From contig JABMNR010000129.1 in NCBI GenBank assembly GCA_013203465.1, positions 1-39,511 of the forward strand: DNA of 39,511 bases, in the 5' to 3' direction. The stretch comes from Alphaproteobacteria bacterium. GTDB taxonomy: Bacteria; Pseudomonadota; Alphaproteobacteria; Thalassobaculales; Thalassobaculaceae. The notes below the pieces were generated by a model. That model made no database searches. It had not been told where the DNA came from and saw nothing but the letters and a program-made list of their open reading frames with translations. Made by a program: the position numbers and the translations under genes. Shown here piece after piece: positions 1 through 39,511 of this stretch (the stretch's first letter is position 1; the number at the start of each line of letters is the position of its first letter).

Positions 1-98
1 ATACCGATCCGAGGCACACTTTTTGGGTTGGGAGGATCTCATATGGAGAATCTCGGTTCAGGGAATGCCGGCGTTCTGCTCGAAATCTCAAAACCTAC

Positions 99-4582: not shown

Positions 4583-5221
4583 TCAGGTGGTCGTGGCTTC
4601 GTCGTCCGGAACCGGGCGTTTCTCGATCACCTCGTCGATCAACCCGAACTTCTTGGCGTCTTCGGCTGTCAGGAAATTGTCGCGGTCCATGCCCTTTTCG
4701 ATCTCCTCGATCGGCCGACCTGTGTGTTTGACATAGATTTCGTTAAGGCGCGCGCGCGTCGCCAGGATTTCCTTAGCGTGAATTTCGATGTCCGCGGCTT
4801 GTCCCTGAAAACCGCCCGACGGCTGATGAATCATCACCTTGGCGTTCGGCAGGCAATACCGCTTGCCCGGCGCCCCGGCCGCAAGCAGCAGCGAGCCCAT
4901 GGAGGCTGCATGCCCGATACAAACCGTTGAAACCTCGGGGCGGATGTATTCCATGGTGTCATACATCGCCAGACCGGAGGTGACGATGCCTCCCGGCGAG
5001 TTGATGTACATGGAGATATCCTTCTTTGGATTCTCGGATTCAAGGAACAACAACTGCGCGCACACCACGCTGGAGATCGCGTCGTTGATCGGCCCCATGA
5101 CGAAGATGATCCGCTCCTTGAGGAGCCGCGAGTAGATGTCGTAGGCGCGCTCTCCCCGGTTGGTCTGCTCGACCACCATCGGAACCAGGGCGTTCATCGA
5201 GATATCGGCCAGGTTGGCCAT
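4583..5221 (-). CDS. clpP: ATP-dependent Clp protease proteolytic subunit ClpP
   Basis: ClpP forms the barrel-shaped tetradecameric serine peptidase that degrades proteins delivered by ClpX or ClpA. The 212-residue protein carries the catalytic triad: Ser107 in GHAASMGS, His132 in MIHQPSGG and Asp181 in MDRDNF. The first residues ([20 protein letters not shown]) fit a short propeptide. The start ATG is supported by GAGGAAGG about nine bases upstream. It lies between trigger factor and clpX on the same strand, in the order tig-clpP-clpX-lon-hupB typical of proteobacteria. The acidic C-terminal tail is unremarkable. Confidence 0.98.
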
Positions 5222-5321
5222 CGTTAACGTCCTTCCTCATCGGTGCTCGGGATTCGATCCCGCGTCACGAATATGGCAATACCGCGTCCGCTGTACCAGC
5301 CCCGCGATCCAATCTAGACCC

Positions 5322-6905
5322 TTAGCTCTCCTTACCCTTGTCGGCGTCGGCCTTTTTCGCCTTCGGTTTTGCCTTGGCCTTAGGCGTCGCCTTGGAGTCG
5401 GTGTCCTCCGATTTAGCCCCCGACTTTGCCTTGGCGGTTGGTTTCGCCGCCGCCTTCGGCTTTGGCTTCTCCTCGCCATCGGCCGGTGCTTCGTCGGCGT
5501 CCGGGTCGGCGAACAACGCCTCGGCGCTCACGATCGTATCGGTAACCTTAGCCATTTCGACCATGAAATCGACCACCTTGTCCTCGAACAACGGTGCTCG
5601 AACCTGGGCTAACGCCTGCGGATTCTTCTGGTAGTATTCGAAGACGAACTTCTCCTGCCCCGGGAAGCGGCTGGCCTGTTGCTGGATGGCGCGCTGCACC
5701 TCGTCGTCCGTCACCTGGATACTGTTTTGCCGCCCAACCTCCGACAACAGCAGACCCAGGCGCACCCGACGCGTGGCAATCGAGCGGAACTCAGCGCGAT
5801 CTTCCTCGCTCAGCTTGGCTTCGTCGGCCTCGTGGCCGGCAGCGTGATTGTGATCATCGCCATGATCGTGGTCGTGGTTGTGGTCGTGTTCCTTACCATG
5901 GTCGTGGTCATGATCGTCGGACGCGCCCTTATCGCCCTCGGCATGGTGCACCACCTGATGGACGATGCCACGGTACTCCTCCTCGACCATGCCCGGCGGC
6001 ACGTCAAAGCTGTACTTTTCGGCCAGGGCGTCCAGCAAAGACCGCTTCAGCCGCGCCCGCGAGGCATCGCCGAATTCGCCTTCAATCTGCTCCTTCACCG
6101 CCGCCTTCAGAGCATCCAGCGAGTCCATACCGAACCGCTGAGCGAAGGCGTCGTTGATCTCGACCGGAGCCGGCTCGCGCAATTCCTTGGCGGTGACGGT
6201 GAACACCGCCTCCTTGCCGGCTAGATGCGCCGCCGGGTAATCGGCCGGGAAGGGCACCGGCACGTCCTTGGTCTCGCCGACCGCGATGCCGATCAGCTGT
6301 TCCTCGAAGCCCGGAATGAAACTGTCCGAGCCCAATTCCAAATGATGATCCTGGCCGGCACCGCCTTCGAACACCTCGCCATCGATCTTGCCCTCGAAAT
6401 CGATGACCACGACGTCGCCTGTGGCGGCTGGACGCGCCTTCTCGACCGGGGATGATTCCTTCTGCTGGGACGCCATCCGATCCAGCGCTTCCTTGATCTG
6501 GTCCTCGCCGACCTCGGCCGTCACCCGCTCAAGCGACAGCTTGGCGTAGTCGAGCGTACCGATGTCCGGCATCAGCTCCAGGCTGACCGTGTATTCGAGG
6601 TCCTTGCCTTTATCGTAGGACGTGATCTCGATCCGCGGCTGGCTGGCGACGCGCAGATCGCGCTCCTCCAGGGTCTTTTGCGTGTTCTCGTTTACCGATT
6701 TCTCGATGATCTCGCCCAGCAAAGAGTCGCCGTATCGCTGTCGCAACAGCGACGGCGGCACCTTGCCCGGCCGGAATCCCGGCAGGCTGACCTGTGGTGC
6801 CAGCTCGACCAGGCGGCTGTTCAGCTCGGCGTCAAGCTCGGCCGCTGGGATGATGATCTTGAACTCACGCGTCAGTCCCTCGGCGAGGGTCTCGGTCACT
6901 TCCAT
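5322..6905 (-). CDS. tig: Trigger factor with His/Asp-rich insertion and Lys/Ala-rich tail
   Basis: Trigger factor is the ribosome-associated chaperone and prolyl isomerase that meets nascent chains at the tunnel exit. Beginning at the ATG at 6905 puts the ribosome-docking signature GFRPGK at residues 43-48, exactly as in E. coli, so this start is preferred over the in-frame GTG three codons upstream. The FKBP-type domain spans about residues 150-245 (VVVIDFEGKIDGEVFEGG). The C-terminal substrate-binding arms follow, with the helix ending near VEMAKVTDTIV. Two features are unusual. An insertion at about residues 320-358 has 13 His, largely as HD/HN dipeptides. A roughly 55-residue tail is rich in Lys, Ala and Pro. 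The protein is therefore 527 residues instead of about 430. It heads the clpP-clpX-lon direction and sits 53 bases after tRNA-Leu. Confidence 0.96.
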   Translation of the reverse strand: MEVTETLAEGLTREFKIIIPAAELDAELNSRLVELAPQVSLPGFRPGKVPPSLLRQRYGDSLLGEIIEKSVNENTQKTLEERDLRVASQPRIEITSYDKGKDLEYTVSLELMPDIGTLDYAKLSLERVTAEVGEDQIKEALDRMASQQKESSPVEKARPAATGDVVVIDFEGKIDGEVFEGGAGQDHHLELGSDSFIPGFEEQLIGIAVGETKDVPVPFPADYPAAHLAGKEAVFTVTAKELREPAPVEINDAFAQRFGMDSLDALKAAVKEQIEGEFGDASRARLKRSLLDALAEKYSFDVPPGMVEEEYRGIVHQVVHHAEGDKGASDDHDHDHGKEHDHNHDHDHGDDHNHAAGHEADEAKLSEEDRAEFRSIATRRVRLGLLLSEVGRQNSIQVTDDEVQRAIQQQASRFPGQEKFVFEYYQKNPQALAQVRAPLFEDKVVDFMVEMAKVTDTIVSAEALFADPDADEAPADGEEKPKPKAAAKPTAKAKSGAKSEDTDSKATPKAKAKPKAKKADADKGKES

Positions 6906-10356: not shown

Positions 10357-12168
10357 ATGACCCAGCAAGACACCCCTTCCCCACCTCCCGCGCGGCGAAC
10401 CGTGTCGATCGCGGTCGTGCTGCTCGGCGGCATCGGCGGGCTGATCGTTATCGCTCAGTTGGTGGTCATGGCGGCCGGCTTGATCACCGCGAGCCGAAAC
10501 ACCGTCGACTTGCTGCGGGAACGCGCGACCCACACCATGCAGGCCACCGTCAAACAGGTTCATGCCCATCTTGCCCCGGCCGACCGTCATGCCCTGTTGG
10601 CGGCGGAGCTGATCGCCGAGAACGATCTCGTGCTCGATCCGGCCATGCTGGATCGGGTCTGGCTCACCATGCTGGTCAACCCGCAAATCCGTGGAAGCGC
10701 GATCGTGCTGAATTCGGAACACACCATCCGAATCGGCCGTGATGGGCTAATGGCACAGGGAGCATGGTCTGATATGGGCGTTCTTCGGGAAGAATACGTC
10801 CGTATCATCCAGGGTGAGGCACGGTGGTCGGAGCCGATCTGGAGCCGTGAACTCGGCGAAACCATCGTCGCGGCCCGCGAGCCCATACGCGATGGCGGCA
10901 AAATTATAGGTTATGTAGCGACCGCCGTGACCGCGTCGGAACTGTCCGAGTACCTCGACTCAATATCGACCCATTCTAGTACGGTCTTCATCATCGATGG
11001 CGGCAATCACGTGATCGCCCATCCGTCGATGGAACGACCACCCCCAAGCTTCTTCATGAACCGATCCACAATTCCCACCATCGCTGAAATGAAGGACCCG
11101 TTTTTGACCGCCTGGGCCGCGGGGAAGTTCGAGTCCGCAAAGCTGTTGGGATCACTCGATGGTTTGGTCGCGGATATCGTCACCGACGCCAAGGGCCACG
11201 AGCATGTGGTGCTCGTATCCAAACTCGACGATGATTTCCCGCACGACTGGCGCCTAGGCATATCGATCGACACGGCCGAGGCGGACTTGCTATTTGATCG
11301 CCTGCAGTGGAGCGCGGCCGCGGGCCTGGTCGTGTTGGCGATCAGCTTGCTGATCCTGGCCCGGGTGGCACGCGCCATCCGACGGCCGATCACCGCACTC
11401 GCCGAGGCGTCCGAGCATGTTCGTCGCCTTGATGTTGACGCCGTGACACCCCTGCCGGCAACTCGCTTGACCGAACTTGCTCAAGCCTCCGACGCTTTCA
11501 ACAAGATGGTCGGCGCCCTGCGCTGGTTCGAGACTTACGTGCCCAAGCGCCTGGTCGCCCGGATCATGCGCGACAGGGGCGACGACGGCCTACCAACCCG
11601 GCGGCGGCTCGTCACCATCCTGTTCACCGACATTCCTGGCTTCACCACTCTCGCCGAGGGTATGGACGCCCGGGCCGTCGCTGGCCTGTTGAATCACCAT
11701 TTCACCTTGATTGCCGGCGCCGTGGAAGCCGAGGGCGGCGTCATCGACAAATACATCGGCGACAGCGTCATGGCGTTCTGGGGCGCGCCGGCCCGCCAGC
11801 AGGATCATGCCACCCGCGCGGTGCGCGCGGCCCGCGCCATTGCCGAGGCGGTCCGTGCCGACAACGCGCGGCGTGTCGCGGCGGGTGAGTTACCGATACG
11901 CATACGGATTGGCCTGCATGACGGCGAGGTGGTGGCCGGCAACATCGGCGCGCCGGGCCGGATCAACTACACGCTTGTCGGCGACGCGGTGAACATCGCC
12001 AACCGATTGGAGGCACTGGGTAAGGAGATCGACCCCAGCGCCGAGGTCATCGCGCTGGCCAGCGCCGACACCGTGGCCAACGCGGCGGTCACCGAGGACC
12101 TCACCGATCTCGGCCCGTACGCCCTGCGCGGGCGGGTCGAGCCGATCCAGGTGTACCGGCTGGTTTAG
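10357..12168 (+). CDS. Membrane-bound class IIIb adenylate cyclase with Cache-type sensor and HAMP
   Basis: This 603-residue protein is built as a one-component receptor. TM1 lies at about 16-45, then a periplasmic Cache-like sensor (about 50-315), TM2 (about 320-341), a HAMP linker and a class III nucleotidyl cyclase domain (about 415-600). Catalytic residues are complete: metal Asp425 (FTDIPGFT) and Asp469 (IGDS), adenine-binding Lys465, Thr539 in the position that is Asp in class IIIa, and transition-state Asn546 and Arg550 (GDAVNIANR). The Thr places it in class IIIb and indicates ATP, so cAMP is the expected product. The ATG at 10357 is chosen; GTG and TTG codons upstream also are in frame. 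AAAGG touches the ATG, which is too close to be an ideal ribosome binding site. It is divergent from prfC and ends 15 bases from a convergent oxidoreductase gene. The ligand is unknown. Confidence 0.92.
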   Translation: MTQQDTPSPPPARRTVSIAVVLLGGIGGLIVIAQLVVMAAGLITASRNTVDLLRERATHTMQATVKQVHAHLAPADRHALLAAELIAENDLVLDPAMLDRVWLTMLVNPQIRGSAIVLNSEHTIRIGRDGLMAQGAWSDMGVLREEYVRIIQGEARWSEPIWSRELGETIVAAREPIRDGGKIIGYVATAVTASELSEYLDSISTHSSTVFIIDGGNHVIAHPSMERPPPSFFMNRSTIPTIAEMKDPFLTAWAAGKFESAKLLGSLDGLVADIVTDAKGHEHVVLVSKLDDDFPHDWRLGISIDTAEADLLFDRLQWSAAAGLVVLAISLLILARVARAIRRPITALAEASEHVRRLDVDAVTPLPATRLTELAQASDAFNKMVGALRWFETYVPKRLVARIMRDRGDDGLPTRRRLVTILFTDIPGFTTLAEGMDARAVAGLLNHHFTLIAGAVEAEGGVIDKYIGDSVMAFWGAPARQQDHATRAVRAARAIAEAVRADNARRVAAGELPIRIRIGLHDGEVVAGNIGAPGRINYTLVGDAVNIANRLEALGKEIDPSAEVIALASADTVANAAVTEDLTDLGPYALRGRVEPIQVYRLV

Positions 12169-29296: not shown

Positions 29297-30325
29297 TCAG
29301 TTCCGCAACCCCATACCGCCGATCATCTCCGCGAGTTCCCCGGATTGATGCAGTTGCTTGATCTCCTCACGGGCCGCATCGGCGTCCGCCGCGGAATCAG
29401 CGTAGACAATCAGGGTCACCGGCTCGTCCTTGAGCCGGGCCGTGTCGGCAACGTCGAGGCCGTTGATACGAATGATCGACTGCAGCGTGTCGACATAGGC
29501 CTGACCAAGCTCGGAGTATTTCGTCAGGGTCTTGGTCAGGGCCTTGCCCATCACCGGCTCGCCGACGCGGCGCAGCGCCGCACGCTCGGCGCGCAAGTCG
29601 GCATAGCTGCGATGGGTGTTCAAGTTACGCATATAGGCGCGCACCGAGTCGAGCGGCCAGTCGAACGAGGCTACCCCGTAATTGCCCTTGGCAGCGCGCT
29701 TTTCCTTGGGACGCATGCCGCTGCCGTCGAAGGTCCACTGTCCGAACAGCGCGTTTCCGAACATCGCGAAGCGCGAGGTGCCGTAACCGCTCTCGTAAGC
29801 GCCCTGGCCCAAGGCCAGGGCCGGCGGTACGGCGTCGACTCGCGCCAGCAACTCGCTGGTCGCCGACAACACGTCCGCGTCATCGGCCCCGTCCCGCACG
29901 ACACGGTAATTCCGGGCCAGATTTCGCAAAAACGCCATGTCGTCGTTGGCTGGGGTCGAACCGGCGGCTTGGCGCGCCGCTACTTCCTGAAGACGGGCAC
30001 GGTCGCGGAGAATCTCTTCATTCGCGACGAGAATGAGCGGCAGGAGAGCCCGGTAGAACAACTCCTTCTTTTCGTTCACCGGCGTTCGCTCGGCATCCTC
30101 GGCCCAACTCTGGCTGATGACCACGACCAGCGCGCGGGGCACCATCAGCGGTTTTGAGGTGTCGATTTCACCCCAGAAATCATTGGCTTTCCAGAACGCG
30201 ACCGCGCTGTCGTCCTCGCCCTGAACGTCAATCCGATATCCGGCCGGCAGGTCGGCAGCCATCCCCGAGAACGGCAGAAGCACCATGCACATGGCCGCTG
30301 CCGCAGCACATCGGAATAGTTTCAT
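29297..30325 (-). CDS. Secreted Bax-like glucosaminidase-domain protein
   Basis: The 342-residue protein has a signal peptide (MKLFRCAAAAAMCMVLLPFS, predicted cut after GMA at about 23). It ends in a domain like E. coli Bax, of the N-acetylglucosaminidase (lysozyme-like) family: PPALALGQGAYESGYGTSRF with the likely catalytic Glu178, NALFGQWTFDG, and YMRNLNTHRSYADLR. It should cleave or bind peptidoglycan in the periplasm. The ATG at 30325 is preferred to upstream in-frame codons because AGGAGGGGG lies just upstream and the signal peptide begins there. It stands alone, converging with the sulfotransferase-like gene. The 221 bases upstream, up to the end of guaA, show no further gene and no clear terminator. 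Confidence 0.88.
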   Translation of the reverse strand: MKLFRCAAAAAMCMVLLPFSGMAADLPAGYRIDVQGEDDSAVAFWKANDFWGEIDTSKPLMVPRALVVVISQSWAEDAERTPVNEKKELFYRALLPLILVANEEILRDRARLQEVAARQAAGSTPANDDMAFLRNLARNYRVVRDGADDADVLSATSELLARVDAVPPALALGQGAYESGYGTSRFAMFGNALFGQWTFDGSGMRPKEKRAAKGNYGVASFDWPLDSVRAYMRNLNTHRSYADLRAERAALRRVGEPVMGKALTKTLTKYSELGQAYVDTLQSIIRINGLDVADTARLKDEPVTLIVYADSAADADAAREEIKQLHQSGELAEMIGGMGLRN

Positions 30326-37298: not shown

Positions 37299-38414
37299 TT
37301 AGCTCCGTCCAGCCAACAGGCCGAATAGAATACCCTCGCGCACGCCACGGTCGGCGACCCGCAGACGCGGCACTCTCCATGTTCGGCAGATCGCCTCCAG
37401 GATGGCGCAACCGGCGACCACCAGATCGGCGCGTTCCCGTCCGATGCACGGATGTGCCGCTCGCTCATCGAAGCTCTGTGCCGCTAACCGTCGTCCAATC
37501 GCCATGGTTTCCGTCACATCCAGGAATACGCCATCGACCTTGTCGCGCACATAACGCGGCAGGTCCAGCCATACACCGGCCAAGGTAGTCACGGTGCCGG
37601 AGGTGCCGACCATTTGGACCCGCCCTAGAATGACCTGATCGGCGATAGCATGCTCGACCTCGAACGATGCCAGCGCGTCCACCACCTCGGTGATCATCAC
37701 CTCATAGGCGCCGTCACCATAACGATCGCCACCATGCCGTTCAGCCAGGGTGACAACGCCGATCGGCATCGAGGTGGCGTCAATCATGCGCTCGACAGTT
37801 CCGGAGCGGGCCCAGGCAAGCTCCGTCGACCCGCCGCCTATGTCAAACACCAAGGCGCCAGGCACATCCGGTTCCAATAAGGGGCGACAGCCGGCGAACG
37901 CCAGGCCAGCTTCCTCCTGAGTCGAGATCACCTCCAGCGTCAATCCGGTCTCGCGCTTCACCTGATCGAGAAAGGCCTCGCCATTACCAGCGCGGCGACA
38001 CGCCTCGGTCGCAACCGCCCGGAACCGGGTGACCCGACGCCGCCGCATCTTGGCGCTGCACACACGCAGGGCATCGAGCGTGCGATCAATCGCCTCCTCG
38101 GTCAGCCGACCGGATCGTCCCAATCCCTCGCCCAGGCGGACGATGCGCGAAAACGCATCAATCACGCGGAAGCCACCACCTCGTTCCGGGCGGGCGACCA
38201 GTAACCGGCAGTTGTTAGTACCGAGGTCCAGCGCCGCCAGCACGTCATCCGATCTGGCGGGACCATACTCCTGCATCGCTTCCGTCCCGGAACGCGTGTT
38301 CCTGGCGGCGGCCGGCCCGTCCCCCGATGTCTCCCCTTCGCCGCGGCCGTTATCCGGCCGTCGCGTTCGTCGTTGGGACGGGGAACCGCCGAAGCCATTG
38401 AGCTCCGAGGTCAT
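37299..38414 (-). CDS. Ppx/GppA-family exopolyphosphatase/pppGpp phosphatase
   Basis: The protein belongs to the ASKHA-fold Ppx/GppA family, which hydrolyses polyphosphate ends or pppGpp. Phosphate-1 motif AALDLGTNNCRLLVA starts near residue 60, and phosphate-2 motif VFDIGGGSTELAW lies near 190; the intervening EEAGLAFAG is typical. At 371 residues it is the short form without the HD domain, so I cannot choose between Ppx and GppA. The first 55 residues are disordered and rich in Arg, Gly and Ser. The ATG at 38414 has AGGA five bases upstream. An internal ATG at 38276 with GGGACGGA upstream would remove most of that extension and also is possible. It leads directly into rlmE with a three-base gap. 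Confidence 0.93.
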   Translation of the reverse strand: MTSELNGFGGSPSQRRTRRPDNGRGEGETSGDGPAAARNTRSGTEAMQEYGPARSDDVLAALDLGTNNCRLLVARPERGGGFRVIDAFSRIVRLGEGLGRSGRLTEEAIDRTLDALRVCSAKMRRRRVTRFRAVATEACRRAGNGEAFLDQVKRETGLTLEVISTQEEAGLAFAGCRPLLEPDVPGALVFDIGGGSTELAWARSGTVERMIDATSMPIGVVTLAERHGGDRYGDGAYEVMITEVVDALASFEVEHAIADQVILGRVQMVGTSGTVTTLAGVWLDLPRYVRDKVDGVFLDVTETMAIGRRLAAQSFDERAAHPCIGRERADLVVAGCAILEAICRTWRVPRLRVADRGVREGILFGLLAGRS

Positions 38415-38662: not shown

Positions 38663-38736
38663 TGGGGGATCGTCTAGCGGTAGGACTGCGGACTCTGACT
38701 CCGCCAACCCTGGTTCGAATCCAGGTCCCCCAGCCA
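38663..38736 (+). tRNA. tRNA-Gln (anticodon CUG)
   Basis: The 74-base gene begins TGGGGGA and its acceptor closes with TCCCCCA, discriminator G and encoded CCA (38734-38736). The anticodon stem GCGGA/TCCGC encloses CTCTGAC, giving anticodon CUG, and the T-arm has GGTTCGAATCC. It lies 248 bases from the divergent ppx/gppA gene; that gap holds no gene I can support. A tyrosine integrase begins 77 bases past its 3' end, so the tRNA is a likely integration target. Confidence 0.96.
38711..38736 (+). other. Probable attachment site (left junction) in the 3' end of tRNA-Gln
   Basis: Tyrosine integrases of this kind usually recombine within the T-arm and acceptor end of a tRNA gene, leaving it intact. 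The integrase immediately downstream and the lack of conserved chromosomal genes after the tRNA make this the likely attL or attR core. Its partner copy would lie beyond the window, so the exact length cannot be given. Confidence 0.4.
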
Positions 38737-38813
38737 TTGATTTTATTAAGTTTTCTCCGGTTAATCTAACGACAGTCATCATCGGTTGGGCGAATAGTTG
38801 GGAAGTCTGTTCC

Positions 38814-39511
38814 CTAATTGGCCTCCAAGTTGGCGATTGCCTCATCGGCCAGGATCGCGGTCCGCGAGATATAATGATGATCCAGGATCGCTCCGACCTG
38901 GCCCATGGTGTGCCCGGTGATGGCGCTGATTAGCGCGTGATCGCAGCCTGCCAAAGCAAGCCGCGTCACCGCCGTTCCGCGAATGTCGTTGAAGGTGAGC
39001 CCTTCAATGCCGGCTCGCTTGACGAGCTTCCGCCACGACGAAGAAAAACCAGCTGATGTCCAGGGCCGTCCGGCCGAGTTGGTGAGGATGACCGGGCTGC
39101 ATCGTGGCGCCGTCTCAAGCGCCTGGCGCAACGTCGAGTGGACTGGAATAGAAACCCTAGCGCCGGTCTTGTTTTGGCGCAGCCTCACTCGCTCACCATC
39201 GTAAGCGGACCACGGGAGCCGGAGGAGATCACCTTGCCGCTGACCCGTGTACAGCGCGAATATAAACGCGAGACGTAATTCGGGGCTGGCTTTCGCTAAA
39301 AGCGCGACCTCATCATCGACCGTCCATATCTTGTCCGCTCTGGTTCCCCTGTACAGGCGTCCTGCCCTCTCCAAGGGGTTAGCAAGGACGAGGCCTCGGT
39401 CGAAGGCCCATGACACGACGCGCGCTAAAACTGTAAACGCATAGTCGGCTTGGCGTGGTGTAGCTGACGGCTGATGGCCGCGCTCTCCGGCAAGGCCGGG
39501 ATGATCAGCGC
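38814..39511 (-). CDS. Tyrosine-type site-specific integrase, 5' end beyond the window
   Basis: This is the C-terminal catalytic domain and part of the core-binding domain of a phage-type integrase. The frame has no stop up to base 39511 and reads PSATPRQADYAFTVLARVVS ahead of the first possible start codon, which clearly belongs to the core-binding domain, so the gene continues outside. Active-site residues: Arg in YTGQRQGDLL, Lys in RQNKTGARV, Arg in NDIRGTAVTRL, His in ITGHTMGQV and the Tyr nucleophile in DHHYISRT. The box II His found in most relatives (HDLRG) is Asn here. Such enzymes integrate and excise prophages and genomic islands. It points toward tRNA-Gln with its 3' end 77 bases from the tRNA. 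Confidence 0.93.
   Translation of the reverse strand, partial: ADHPGLAGERGHQPSATPRQADYAFTVLARVVSWAFDRGLVLANPLERAGRLYRGTRADKIWTVDDEVALLAKASPELRLAFIFALYTGQRQGDLLRLPWSAYDGERVRLRQNKTGARVSIPVHSTLRQALETAPRCSPVILTNSAGRPWTSAGFSSSWRKLVKRAGIEGLTFNDIRGTAVTRLALAGCDHALISAITGHTMGQVGAILDHHYISRTAILADEAIANLEAN

What the first reader, a model, noticed from the sequence alone, without database searches (positions are those of the whole stretch)
38663..39511. Left edge of an integrated element at tRNA-Gln(CUG)
An intact tRNA-Gln is followed after 77 bases by a tyrosine integrase that runs off the window, while everything before the tRNA is conserved housekeeping. This is the usual layout of a genomic island or prophage inserted in a tRNA 3' end. 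If an unknown system is nearby, it most likely is carried beyond base 39511.
Basis: partly seen in the sequence, partly recalled or inferred. Interest (0 to 1): 0.55.

Follow-up and report, generated by a model that had tools for sequence, protein, structure and literature searches.

The report
Two mobile elements stacked at tRNA-Gln
The window ends inside a mobile element inserted in a glutamine tRNA gene; its far end is on another contig, where it abuts an older element whose serine-type integrase belongs to a group that repeatedly sits at the ends of tRNA genes, a target credited almost only to the other integrase type.

Summary
Window 38690-38736, the 3' part of tRNA-Gln(CUG), is one arm of a 47-bp direct repeat; the only other exact copy in the 4.48-Mb draft genome is at C65:2939-2985. 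In four relatives the sequence after the tRNA matches what follows the C65 copy, so they lack this insert. The integrase (PF00589) does not simply run off: from 39449 the DNA is the end of an IS-like repeat found at seven other contig ends. Its ~125-150 first codons were not found and the HxxR histidine is Asn; the element is probably decayed. This part is ordinary.

Beyond the C65 repeat lies an element with a large serine recombinase (LSR). Of its 80 best relatives in named genomes, 49 have a tRNA 162-516 bp after the stop, all with the 3' end facing the LSR; background is 0.35% per 600 bp. Relatives with a short C-terminus: 0 of 13. In IMG/VR only 10 have a tRNA and 44 do not. [quoted passage not shown] isolated exceptions are in print.

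The parts
37299..38414 (-). Ppx/GppA phosphatase, conserved chromosomal flank; relatives keep tRNA-Gln(CTG) beside it
   Evidence: PF02541 E=1.6e-46; found at E 1e-40 in 32 of 61 genomes including own; of 17 relatives whose ppx flank was fetched, 16 have tRNA-Gln(ctg) there
38663..38736 (+). tRNA-Gln(CUG), the integration target, intact
   Evidence: ARAGORN
38690..38736 (+). left arm of the 47-bp direct repeat (attL), anticodon region to the 3' CCA
   Evidence: exact match to C65:2939-2985, E=5.3e-17; no further exact copy of its 19-base core in the genome
38737..38813 (.). 77-bp spacer between tRNA and integrase stop codon, inside the element
38814..39448 (-). C-terminal part of a tyrosine integrase; N-terminal ~125-150 codons absent; HxxR histidine replaced by Asn, both Arg, the later His and the Tyr kept
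   Evidence: PF00589 E=1.1e-15; alignments with homologues; N-terminus not found in own genome
39449..39511 (.). 63-bp inner part of an IS-like terminal repeat; contig breaks here
   Evidence: 100% to ends of seven other contigs; consensus end begins GGTCGTGTCC, missing here

Best explanation
Two mobile elements of different recombinase chemistry have been inserted one after the other at the 3' end of the same tRNA-Gln(CUG) gene. The older is led by a large serine recombinase (LSR) and begins directly after the tRNA CCA. The younger, whose left edge is in the window, is a tyrosine-integrase element: its integrase recombined in the 3' half of the tRNA, re-supplied that half at the left, and pushed the displaced 47-bp fragment and the older element to the right (now C65). 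The younger element's integrase was later cut by an IS-like sequence, so it is probably fixed. Shown by sequence: both repeats, their flanks, the relatives' sites, the broken integrase frame. Inferred: the order of events, the immobility, and that the LSR itself (not some other enzyme) chooses tRNA 3' ends, exchanging strands within the last 6-8 bp of the gene, with the neighbouring DUF2924 protein as a candidate helper.
For: 47-bp repeat, two perfect copies found genome-wide. Site without the younger element: C65 sequence after the repeat continues tRNA-Gln in G004, G022, G026 and G035; in G004 the LSR (71% identical) stands 236 bp from the tRNA. Related tyrosine integrase next to tRNA-Gln(CTG) on a phage-like contig. 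LSR clade: 49 of the 80 best named loci with facing tRNA, 45 of 64 among loci with at least 800 bp after the stop; class sample (best 30 loci of each of two searches, partly overlapping the named set) 19 of 27 long-C-terminus LSRs versus 0 of 13 with short C-terminus; background 0.35% per 600 bp, 0 tRNAs in 600 bp upstream of 72 LSRs. Near-identical BAL199 copies become identical exactly from CTCCGCCA. Complete chromosome G231: three junctions, tRNA-Val plus two internal, sharing CCACCATCC and similar sequence after it but not before. The tRNA end (GCCA or ACCA) changes 4 times on the LSR tree against 14-24 in 200 shuffles.
Against: The two repeats lie on different contigs; nothing joins them physically. 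The interior of the younger element is unassembled, so its size and cargo are unknown. 19 of 64 named LSR loci with enough sequence have no tRNA within 800 bp, 8 of 27 in the class sample, and in IMG/VR 44 loci have none in 600 bp against 10 that do. Two tRNA-adjacent LSRs (L099, L239) lack a clear C-terminal module, so that module is not strictly required. The short-C-terminus proteins group together on the tree, so the contrast is few evolutionary events, and the loci of the counts are related to each other. The predicted dyad in the reconstructed attachment site did not beat shuffling (1434 of 5000). No recombination was measured.
Confidence: 0.82

Rival explanations
1. The 47-bp copy on C65 is the scar of another tyrosine-integrase element, not the right end of the element in the window; several elements are stacked and the window's own right end is unassembled.
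For: The repeats lie on different contigs of a 238-contig draft; the C65 primase-like protein has no match on the fetched stretches (up to about 21 kb) of the eight IMG/VR contigs with related integrases.
Against: Only two perfect copies of the tRNA end were found in the assembly; the repeat is identical over 47 bp; a third copy between unique flanks would be expected to assemble.
Confidence: 0.12
2. The integrase/IS junction at 39449 is an assembly or read chimera; the integrase is really intact and the IS is not there.
For: The contig ends only 63 bp into the repeat while the other contigs run 34-66 bp further; the codons for RQ of the homologues' RQADY lie in bases that also match the IS end; the outer 10 bp of the IS end are missing.
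Against: The N-terminal part is not found anywhere else in the assembly.
Confidence: 0.3
3. LSR genes sit near tRNA genes passively: tRNA genes are hot spots filled by other integrases, and the LSR is cargo.
For: tRNA ends are common island sites; a nested tyrosine element is seen here, and five named LSR loci have their facing tRNA only 2-6.4 kb away.
Against: Gap 162-516 bp and one orientation in 49 of 49; junctions exact at the tRNA end in near-identical copies and in a tandem array; tRNA end type tracks the LSR tree.
Confidence: 0.1

Closest known systems
Tyrosine-integrase genomic islands and prophages in tRNA 3' ends (Islander class; PMC4383910, passages read)
   Same: tRNA target, restored 3' half, displaced fragment at the far end, integrase pointing at the tRNA
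   Different: integrase broken by an IS-like sequence; displaced fragment is followed by a second, serine-recombinase element
Large serine recombinases (solved domains or proteins of TP901-1, A118, SPbeta YokA and phiC31 integrases match the LSR profile)
   Same: Resolvase plus Recombinase domains; residues Y11-S15 and others invariant among 41 rows
   Different: repeated location at tRNA 3' ends; extra C-terminal part after about residue 430
Isolated tRNA-targeting serine recombinases: phiRSM1 at tRNA-Ser and eight Mycobacterium AICE enzymes at tRNA-Leu (PMC3218068, PMC4471427, passages), phage Pami6 at tRNA-Met (PMC6536676, passages); AcaML1 with attB given as 'srrA' and 10-bp repeats (PMC3826726, passages; I take srrA to be ssrA, tmRNA)
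   Same: serine recombinase, tRNA (or probably tmRNA) end as target, short repeats (13 bp, 10 bp)
   Different: phiRSM enzyme is described as resolvase/invertase-like; each is a single case or a single tRNA, whereas this clade covers ten isotypes. Only AcaML1 was shown here to carry a relative (56% over residues 7-347), and that this protein acts at srrA was not shown
Wolbachia phage WO recombinase
   Same: full-length relative at 34-35% identity
   Different: its attachment site was not examined here

Membership tests
tyrosine-integrase element in a tRNA gene | phage integrase domain PF00589 next to the tRNA, 3' end facing it | tested here: met
tyrosine-integrase element in a tRNA gene | tRNA fragment as direct repeat at the far end | tested here: met
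   47 bp at C65:2939-2985
tyrosine-integrase element in a tRNA gene | relatives with the uninterrupted site | tested here: met
   G004, G022, G026, G035
tyrosine-integrase element in a tRNA gene | both ends on one molecule | not testable with these tools
   different contigs; no contig with the IS interior was found
tyrosine-integrase element in a tRNA gene | complete, catalytic integrase | tested here: not met
   N-terminus missing, HxxR His to Asn
large serine recombinase (gene on C65) | Resolvase plus Recombinase domains, catalytic Ser | tested here: met
   PF00239 and PF07508; S15 invariant among 41 rows; that S15 is the nucleophile is recalled from the family
large serine recombinase (gene on C65) | zinc-ribbon domain PF13408 | tested here: not met
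   not reported at E 0.001; ten of 42 streptococcal serine integrases lack it too (PMC4701971, passages), so it is not strictly defining
tRNA-3'-end-targeting LSR clade | tRNA 3' end within 600 bp after the stop, facing it | tested here: met
   in the close relative G004; in G000 the tRNA is displaced by the younger element; clade counts
tRNA-3'-end-targeting LSR clade | junction exactly at the tRNA CCA end | tested here: met
   BAL199 CTCCGCCA, G231 CCACCA, G004 tandem CAGCCA
tRNA-3'-end-targeting LSR clade | recombination by the enzyme at that site | not testable with these tools
   needs an experiment

The most novel reading that the evidence does not exclude
[quoted passage not shown] It crosses over within the last few bases of the gene, follows the base before CCA, and builds stacked arrays of elements at one tRNA. 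Tyrosine and serine integrases thus compete for the same sites, against the stated view that serine integrases do not specify tRNA genes.
Probability: 0.72. Interest if true: 0.65.

Novelty: new variant of a known kind. Interest (0 to 1): 0.5.

Why it matters
The tyrosine-integrase edge itself is routine. [quoted passage not shown] A clade that does so with short cores could explain why such elements often lack a detected site (a site was predicted for only one of the serine-recombinase prophages of Paracoccus, PMC6536676, passages), gives candidate integrases for conserved tRNA ends in many species, and makes tRNA-end recognition by serine integrases directly testable.

Tried and rejected
HAD-family gene that follows tRNA-Gln in G013 as a marker of the ancestral right flank: matches in the eight other genomes are 42-45% identical and G013 itself has a second one at 43%, so they look like paralogues. 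Left end of the BAL199 element from copies L167/L168: identity breaks inside a gene, not at an att site, so rejected as element end. Inverted repeat around the core of the reconstructed G231 site: not better than shuffles (1434 and 1381 of 5000); an earlier run was off by one base and is discarded. IS interior: no contig with it was found. Extension of C65 to the left: IMG/VR contig L262 is identical over 10,550 bp and adds only 268 bp with repeats of the first bases. Second tRNA-end copy on the contig of L342: only one, so no att pair there. DUF2924 fold: no PDB match at E 0.001 or better; 9 of 40 members match RAMA weakly (best E 7.7e-6). Rows dropped: of the 30 loci, 14 that repeat places were dropped; four identical proteins (L134, L168, L169, L171) were dropped from the tree (123 kept), while the isotype counts there (71) still include L134, and L075 and L164 are the same place. 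Only the best 80 of 545 relatives, 80 of 179 and 30 loci per class search were examined.

Full report
1. What is in the window. The window is the whole contig C124 of a 238-contig, 4.48-Mb draft genome. tRNA-Gln(CTG) is at 38663-38736. After 77 bases an integrase frame begins with its stop codon (38814-38816, - strand) and matches PF00589 (E=1.1e-15) and the PHROG integrase family (E=6.2e-31). The genes before the tRNA are chromosomal: Ppx/GppA and FtsJ by Pfam, the others after base 30000 recognised by eye.

2. The integrase is broken, not merely cut by the window. From 39449 to 39511 the DNA is identical to a repeat that lies at the ends of C227, C226, C197, C179, C117, C32 and C17. There the repeat begins GGTCGTGTCCCTTGG, an IS-like end; a small copy with both ends stands on C217. 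In the window its outer 10 bases are missing. Homologues of 336-378 aa in seven class genomes' loci, and of 323-420 aa on six of eight IMG/VR contigs (the other two have broken frames), show that about 125-150 N-terminal codons are lacking. A homologue's N-terminus finds nothing else in the genome. In the catalytic box the usual HxxR reads NDIR; the two arginines, the later histidine and the tyrosine are kept. The codons next to the junction fit both the integrase and the IS end, so a real rearrangement and a chimera are both possible.

3. The other end. The last 47 bases of the tRNA (38690-38736) recur exactly once more, at C65:2939-2985. What follows that copy on C65 is what follows tRNA-Gln directly in four of 17 relatives' loci: aligned from the repeat through the tRNA end into the flank, G004 81% over 102 bp, G022 82% over 128, G026 86% over 105, G035 79% over 230 (47 bp of each is tRNA). 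These are sites without this insert. Left of the repeat, inside the element, C65 encodes a primase/helicase-like AAA_25 protein. IMG/VR holds the same contig (L262, 100% over 10,550 bp) with 268 bp more. A 60%-identical integrase on a 42-kb IMG/VR contig with phage-type replication genes ends 7 bp from a tRNA-Gln(CTG). Of seven relatives in class genomes five have a tRNA nearby (Pro, Gly, Thr three times).

4. The neighbour. Right of the C65 repeat stands, 264 bp away, the stop of a 566-aa large serine recombinase (Resolvase plus Recombinase domains); upstream of it are DUF2924, DUF3489, terminase large subunit, DUF5681 and a ParB-methylase protein. In G004 the same recombinase (71%) ends about 236 bp from tRNA-Gln; G026 keeps a remnant. 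In G004 the 169 bp that begin with the last six bases of the tRNA recur at 83% identity 6.3 kb further on, as expected if two such elements were inserted in turn.

5. The association with tRNA genes. Of the 80 best named loci that encode relatives (of 545), 49 have a tRNA within 162-516 bp after the stop, and in all 49 the 3' end faces the recombinase; 48 read CCA there and one (L136) reads N. Counting only loci with at least 800 bp after the stop, it is 45 of 64. In the same loci, tRNAs elsewhere give a background of 0.35% per 600 bp, none lies in the 600 bp upstream of 72 of these genes, and within the 600 bp after the stop 50 tRNAs face the gene and 3 do not (the nearest tRNA of each locus is the one counted). 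A second sample, the best 30 loci of each of two searches of 289 class genomes (14 repeats dropped), overlaps the first in at least three loci (L073/L134, L076/L171, L075/L164). There, recombinases with the long C-terminal part have a facing tRNA in 19 of 27 loci with enough sequence (3 more had too little), those of 432-444 aa in 0 of 13 (1 more had too little; Fisher p = 1.9e-5). Two more without a clear C-terminal hit (L099, L239) do stand at tRNA-Ser; with them in the other group the count is 2 of 15 and p = 9e-4. The C-terminal part is thus a correlate and not a rule. Ten isotypes occur: Ser 35, Gln 12, Met 8, Thr 5, Val 3, Ala 2, Lys 2, Arg 2, Tyr 1, Ile 1 among 71 loci (two places counted twice). 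On a FastTree of 123 proteins the tRNA end (GCCA or ACCA, 69 rows) changes 4 times, against 14-24 in 200 shuffles; isotype (70 rows) changes 19 times against 29-36. Against this: 19 of the 64 named loci have no tRNA within 800 bp. Of these, five have a facing tRNA 2-6.4 kb further, three have a tRNA-like 3' end, and two (L144, L169) abut DNA that ends in the same tRNA-Ser end and that I read as the end of another element; the remaining nine are unexplained. Among 79 IMG/VR loci only 10 have a tRNA, all facing, 44 have none in at least 600 bp, 20 end too early and 5 have open frames. Free-phage or trimmed contigs could explain that; I did not test it.

6. Where the strands are exchanged. In BAL199 two copies of one element (99.9% over 7.7 kb) stand beside different DNA; they become identical exactly from CTCCGCCA, the tRNA-Ser end in one of them. 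On a complete chromosome (G231:C1, of the same length, 4,291,441 bp, as CP018227.1, Kordiimonadales bacterium IMCC3096, L164) three junctions stand in a row, at tRNA-Val and at two internal places. All share CCACCATCC; on the element side of the tRNA junction the internal copies are 90% alike over 211 bp and 84% over 44 bp, what precedes it (the tRNA) is not shared. They bound stretches of 48,735 and 10,368 bp. The larger carries a terminase, Z1 and HATPase proteins, an AAA_27 and metallophosphatase pair and a WD40 protein: an island-like cargo. The crossover is therefore within the last 6-8 bp of the tRNA gene.

7. Likely mechanism. The recombinase (profile relatives with solved structures: TP901-1, A118, SPbeta and phiC31 integrases) would pair its own attachment site with the tRNA 3' end and exchange strands near the base before CCA, leaving the tRNA intact. 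DUF2924 stands directly upstream in 103 of 107 long-type and 14 of 14 short-type loci with enough sequence. I propose it as partner or directionality factor; this is inference. Its model is locally confident (mean pLDDT 87, pTM 0.51), without a PDB match, and 9 of 40 members resemble RAMA. The recombinase model (mean pLDDT 81, pTM 0.41) has a helical C-terminal part after residue 477.

8. Against the literature. [quoted passage not shown] PMC3218068 (passages) calls such integration rare, naming phiRSM1 and its own group of eight Mycobacterium enzymes at tRNA-Leu. PMC6536676 (passages) reports one serine-recombinase phage at tRNA-Met. PMC3826726 (passages) lists AcaML1 with attB 'srrA' and 10-bp repeats; I take this to be ssrA. 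AcaML1 carries a relative of this recombinase (56% over residues 7-347). PMC4471427 (passages) gives 13 bp of tRNA-Ser for phiRSM, in the table as 3' and in the text as 5'. Williams 2002 is not held. I found no description of a tRNA-specialised serine clade in these searches; TIGER data (described in PMC12884075, passages) may already contain it unseen.

9. Verdict. Window finding: confirmed, supported, by itself a new member of a known kind. With its neighbour: a new variant, because a serine-recombinase clade uses the same kind of target.

Noticed in passing
window 1-60: The first 60 bases are a repeat, 98% identical to the right end of contig C32, whose left end is the IS end.
   Followed up: no
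L011 (C217) 11830-11888: A short MITE-like copy of the IS ends, inverted repeats GGTCGTGTCCCTTG, stands alone.
   Followed up: no
L011 (C217) 36-372, and L010 (C117) 5-66 with L011 12166-12227: Tandem repeats of about 62 bp near one end of C217 (76-79% alike); separately, a 62-bp stretch is shared exactly by the ends of C117 and C217.
   Followed up: no
L125 and L133 against L130: 3.5-6.4 kb lie between the serine recombinase stop and tRNA-Gln in two Kiloniellaceae bins but only 456 bp in a third.
   Followed up: partly
L199/L200 (G231 element): The 48.7-kb stretch at tRNA-Val carries Z1 plus HATPase_c_3 and AAA_27 plus metallophosphatase genes, possible defence cargo.
   Followed up: partly
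L009 (C65) 4946-5410 and relatives: DUF2924 is the near-constant neighbour of this serine recombinase family, tRNA-targeting or not, and 9 of 40 members resemble RAMA.
   Followed up: partly
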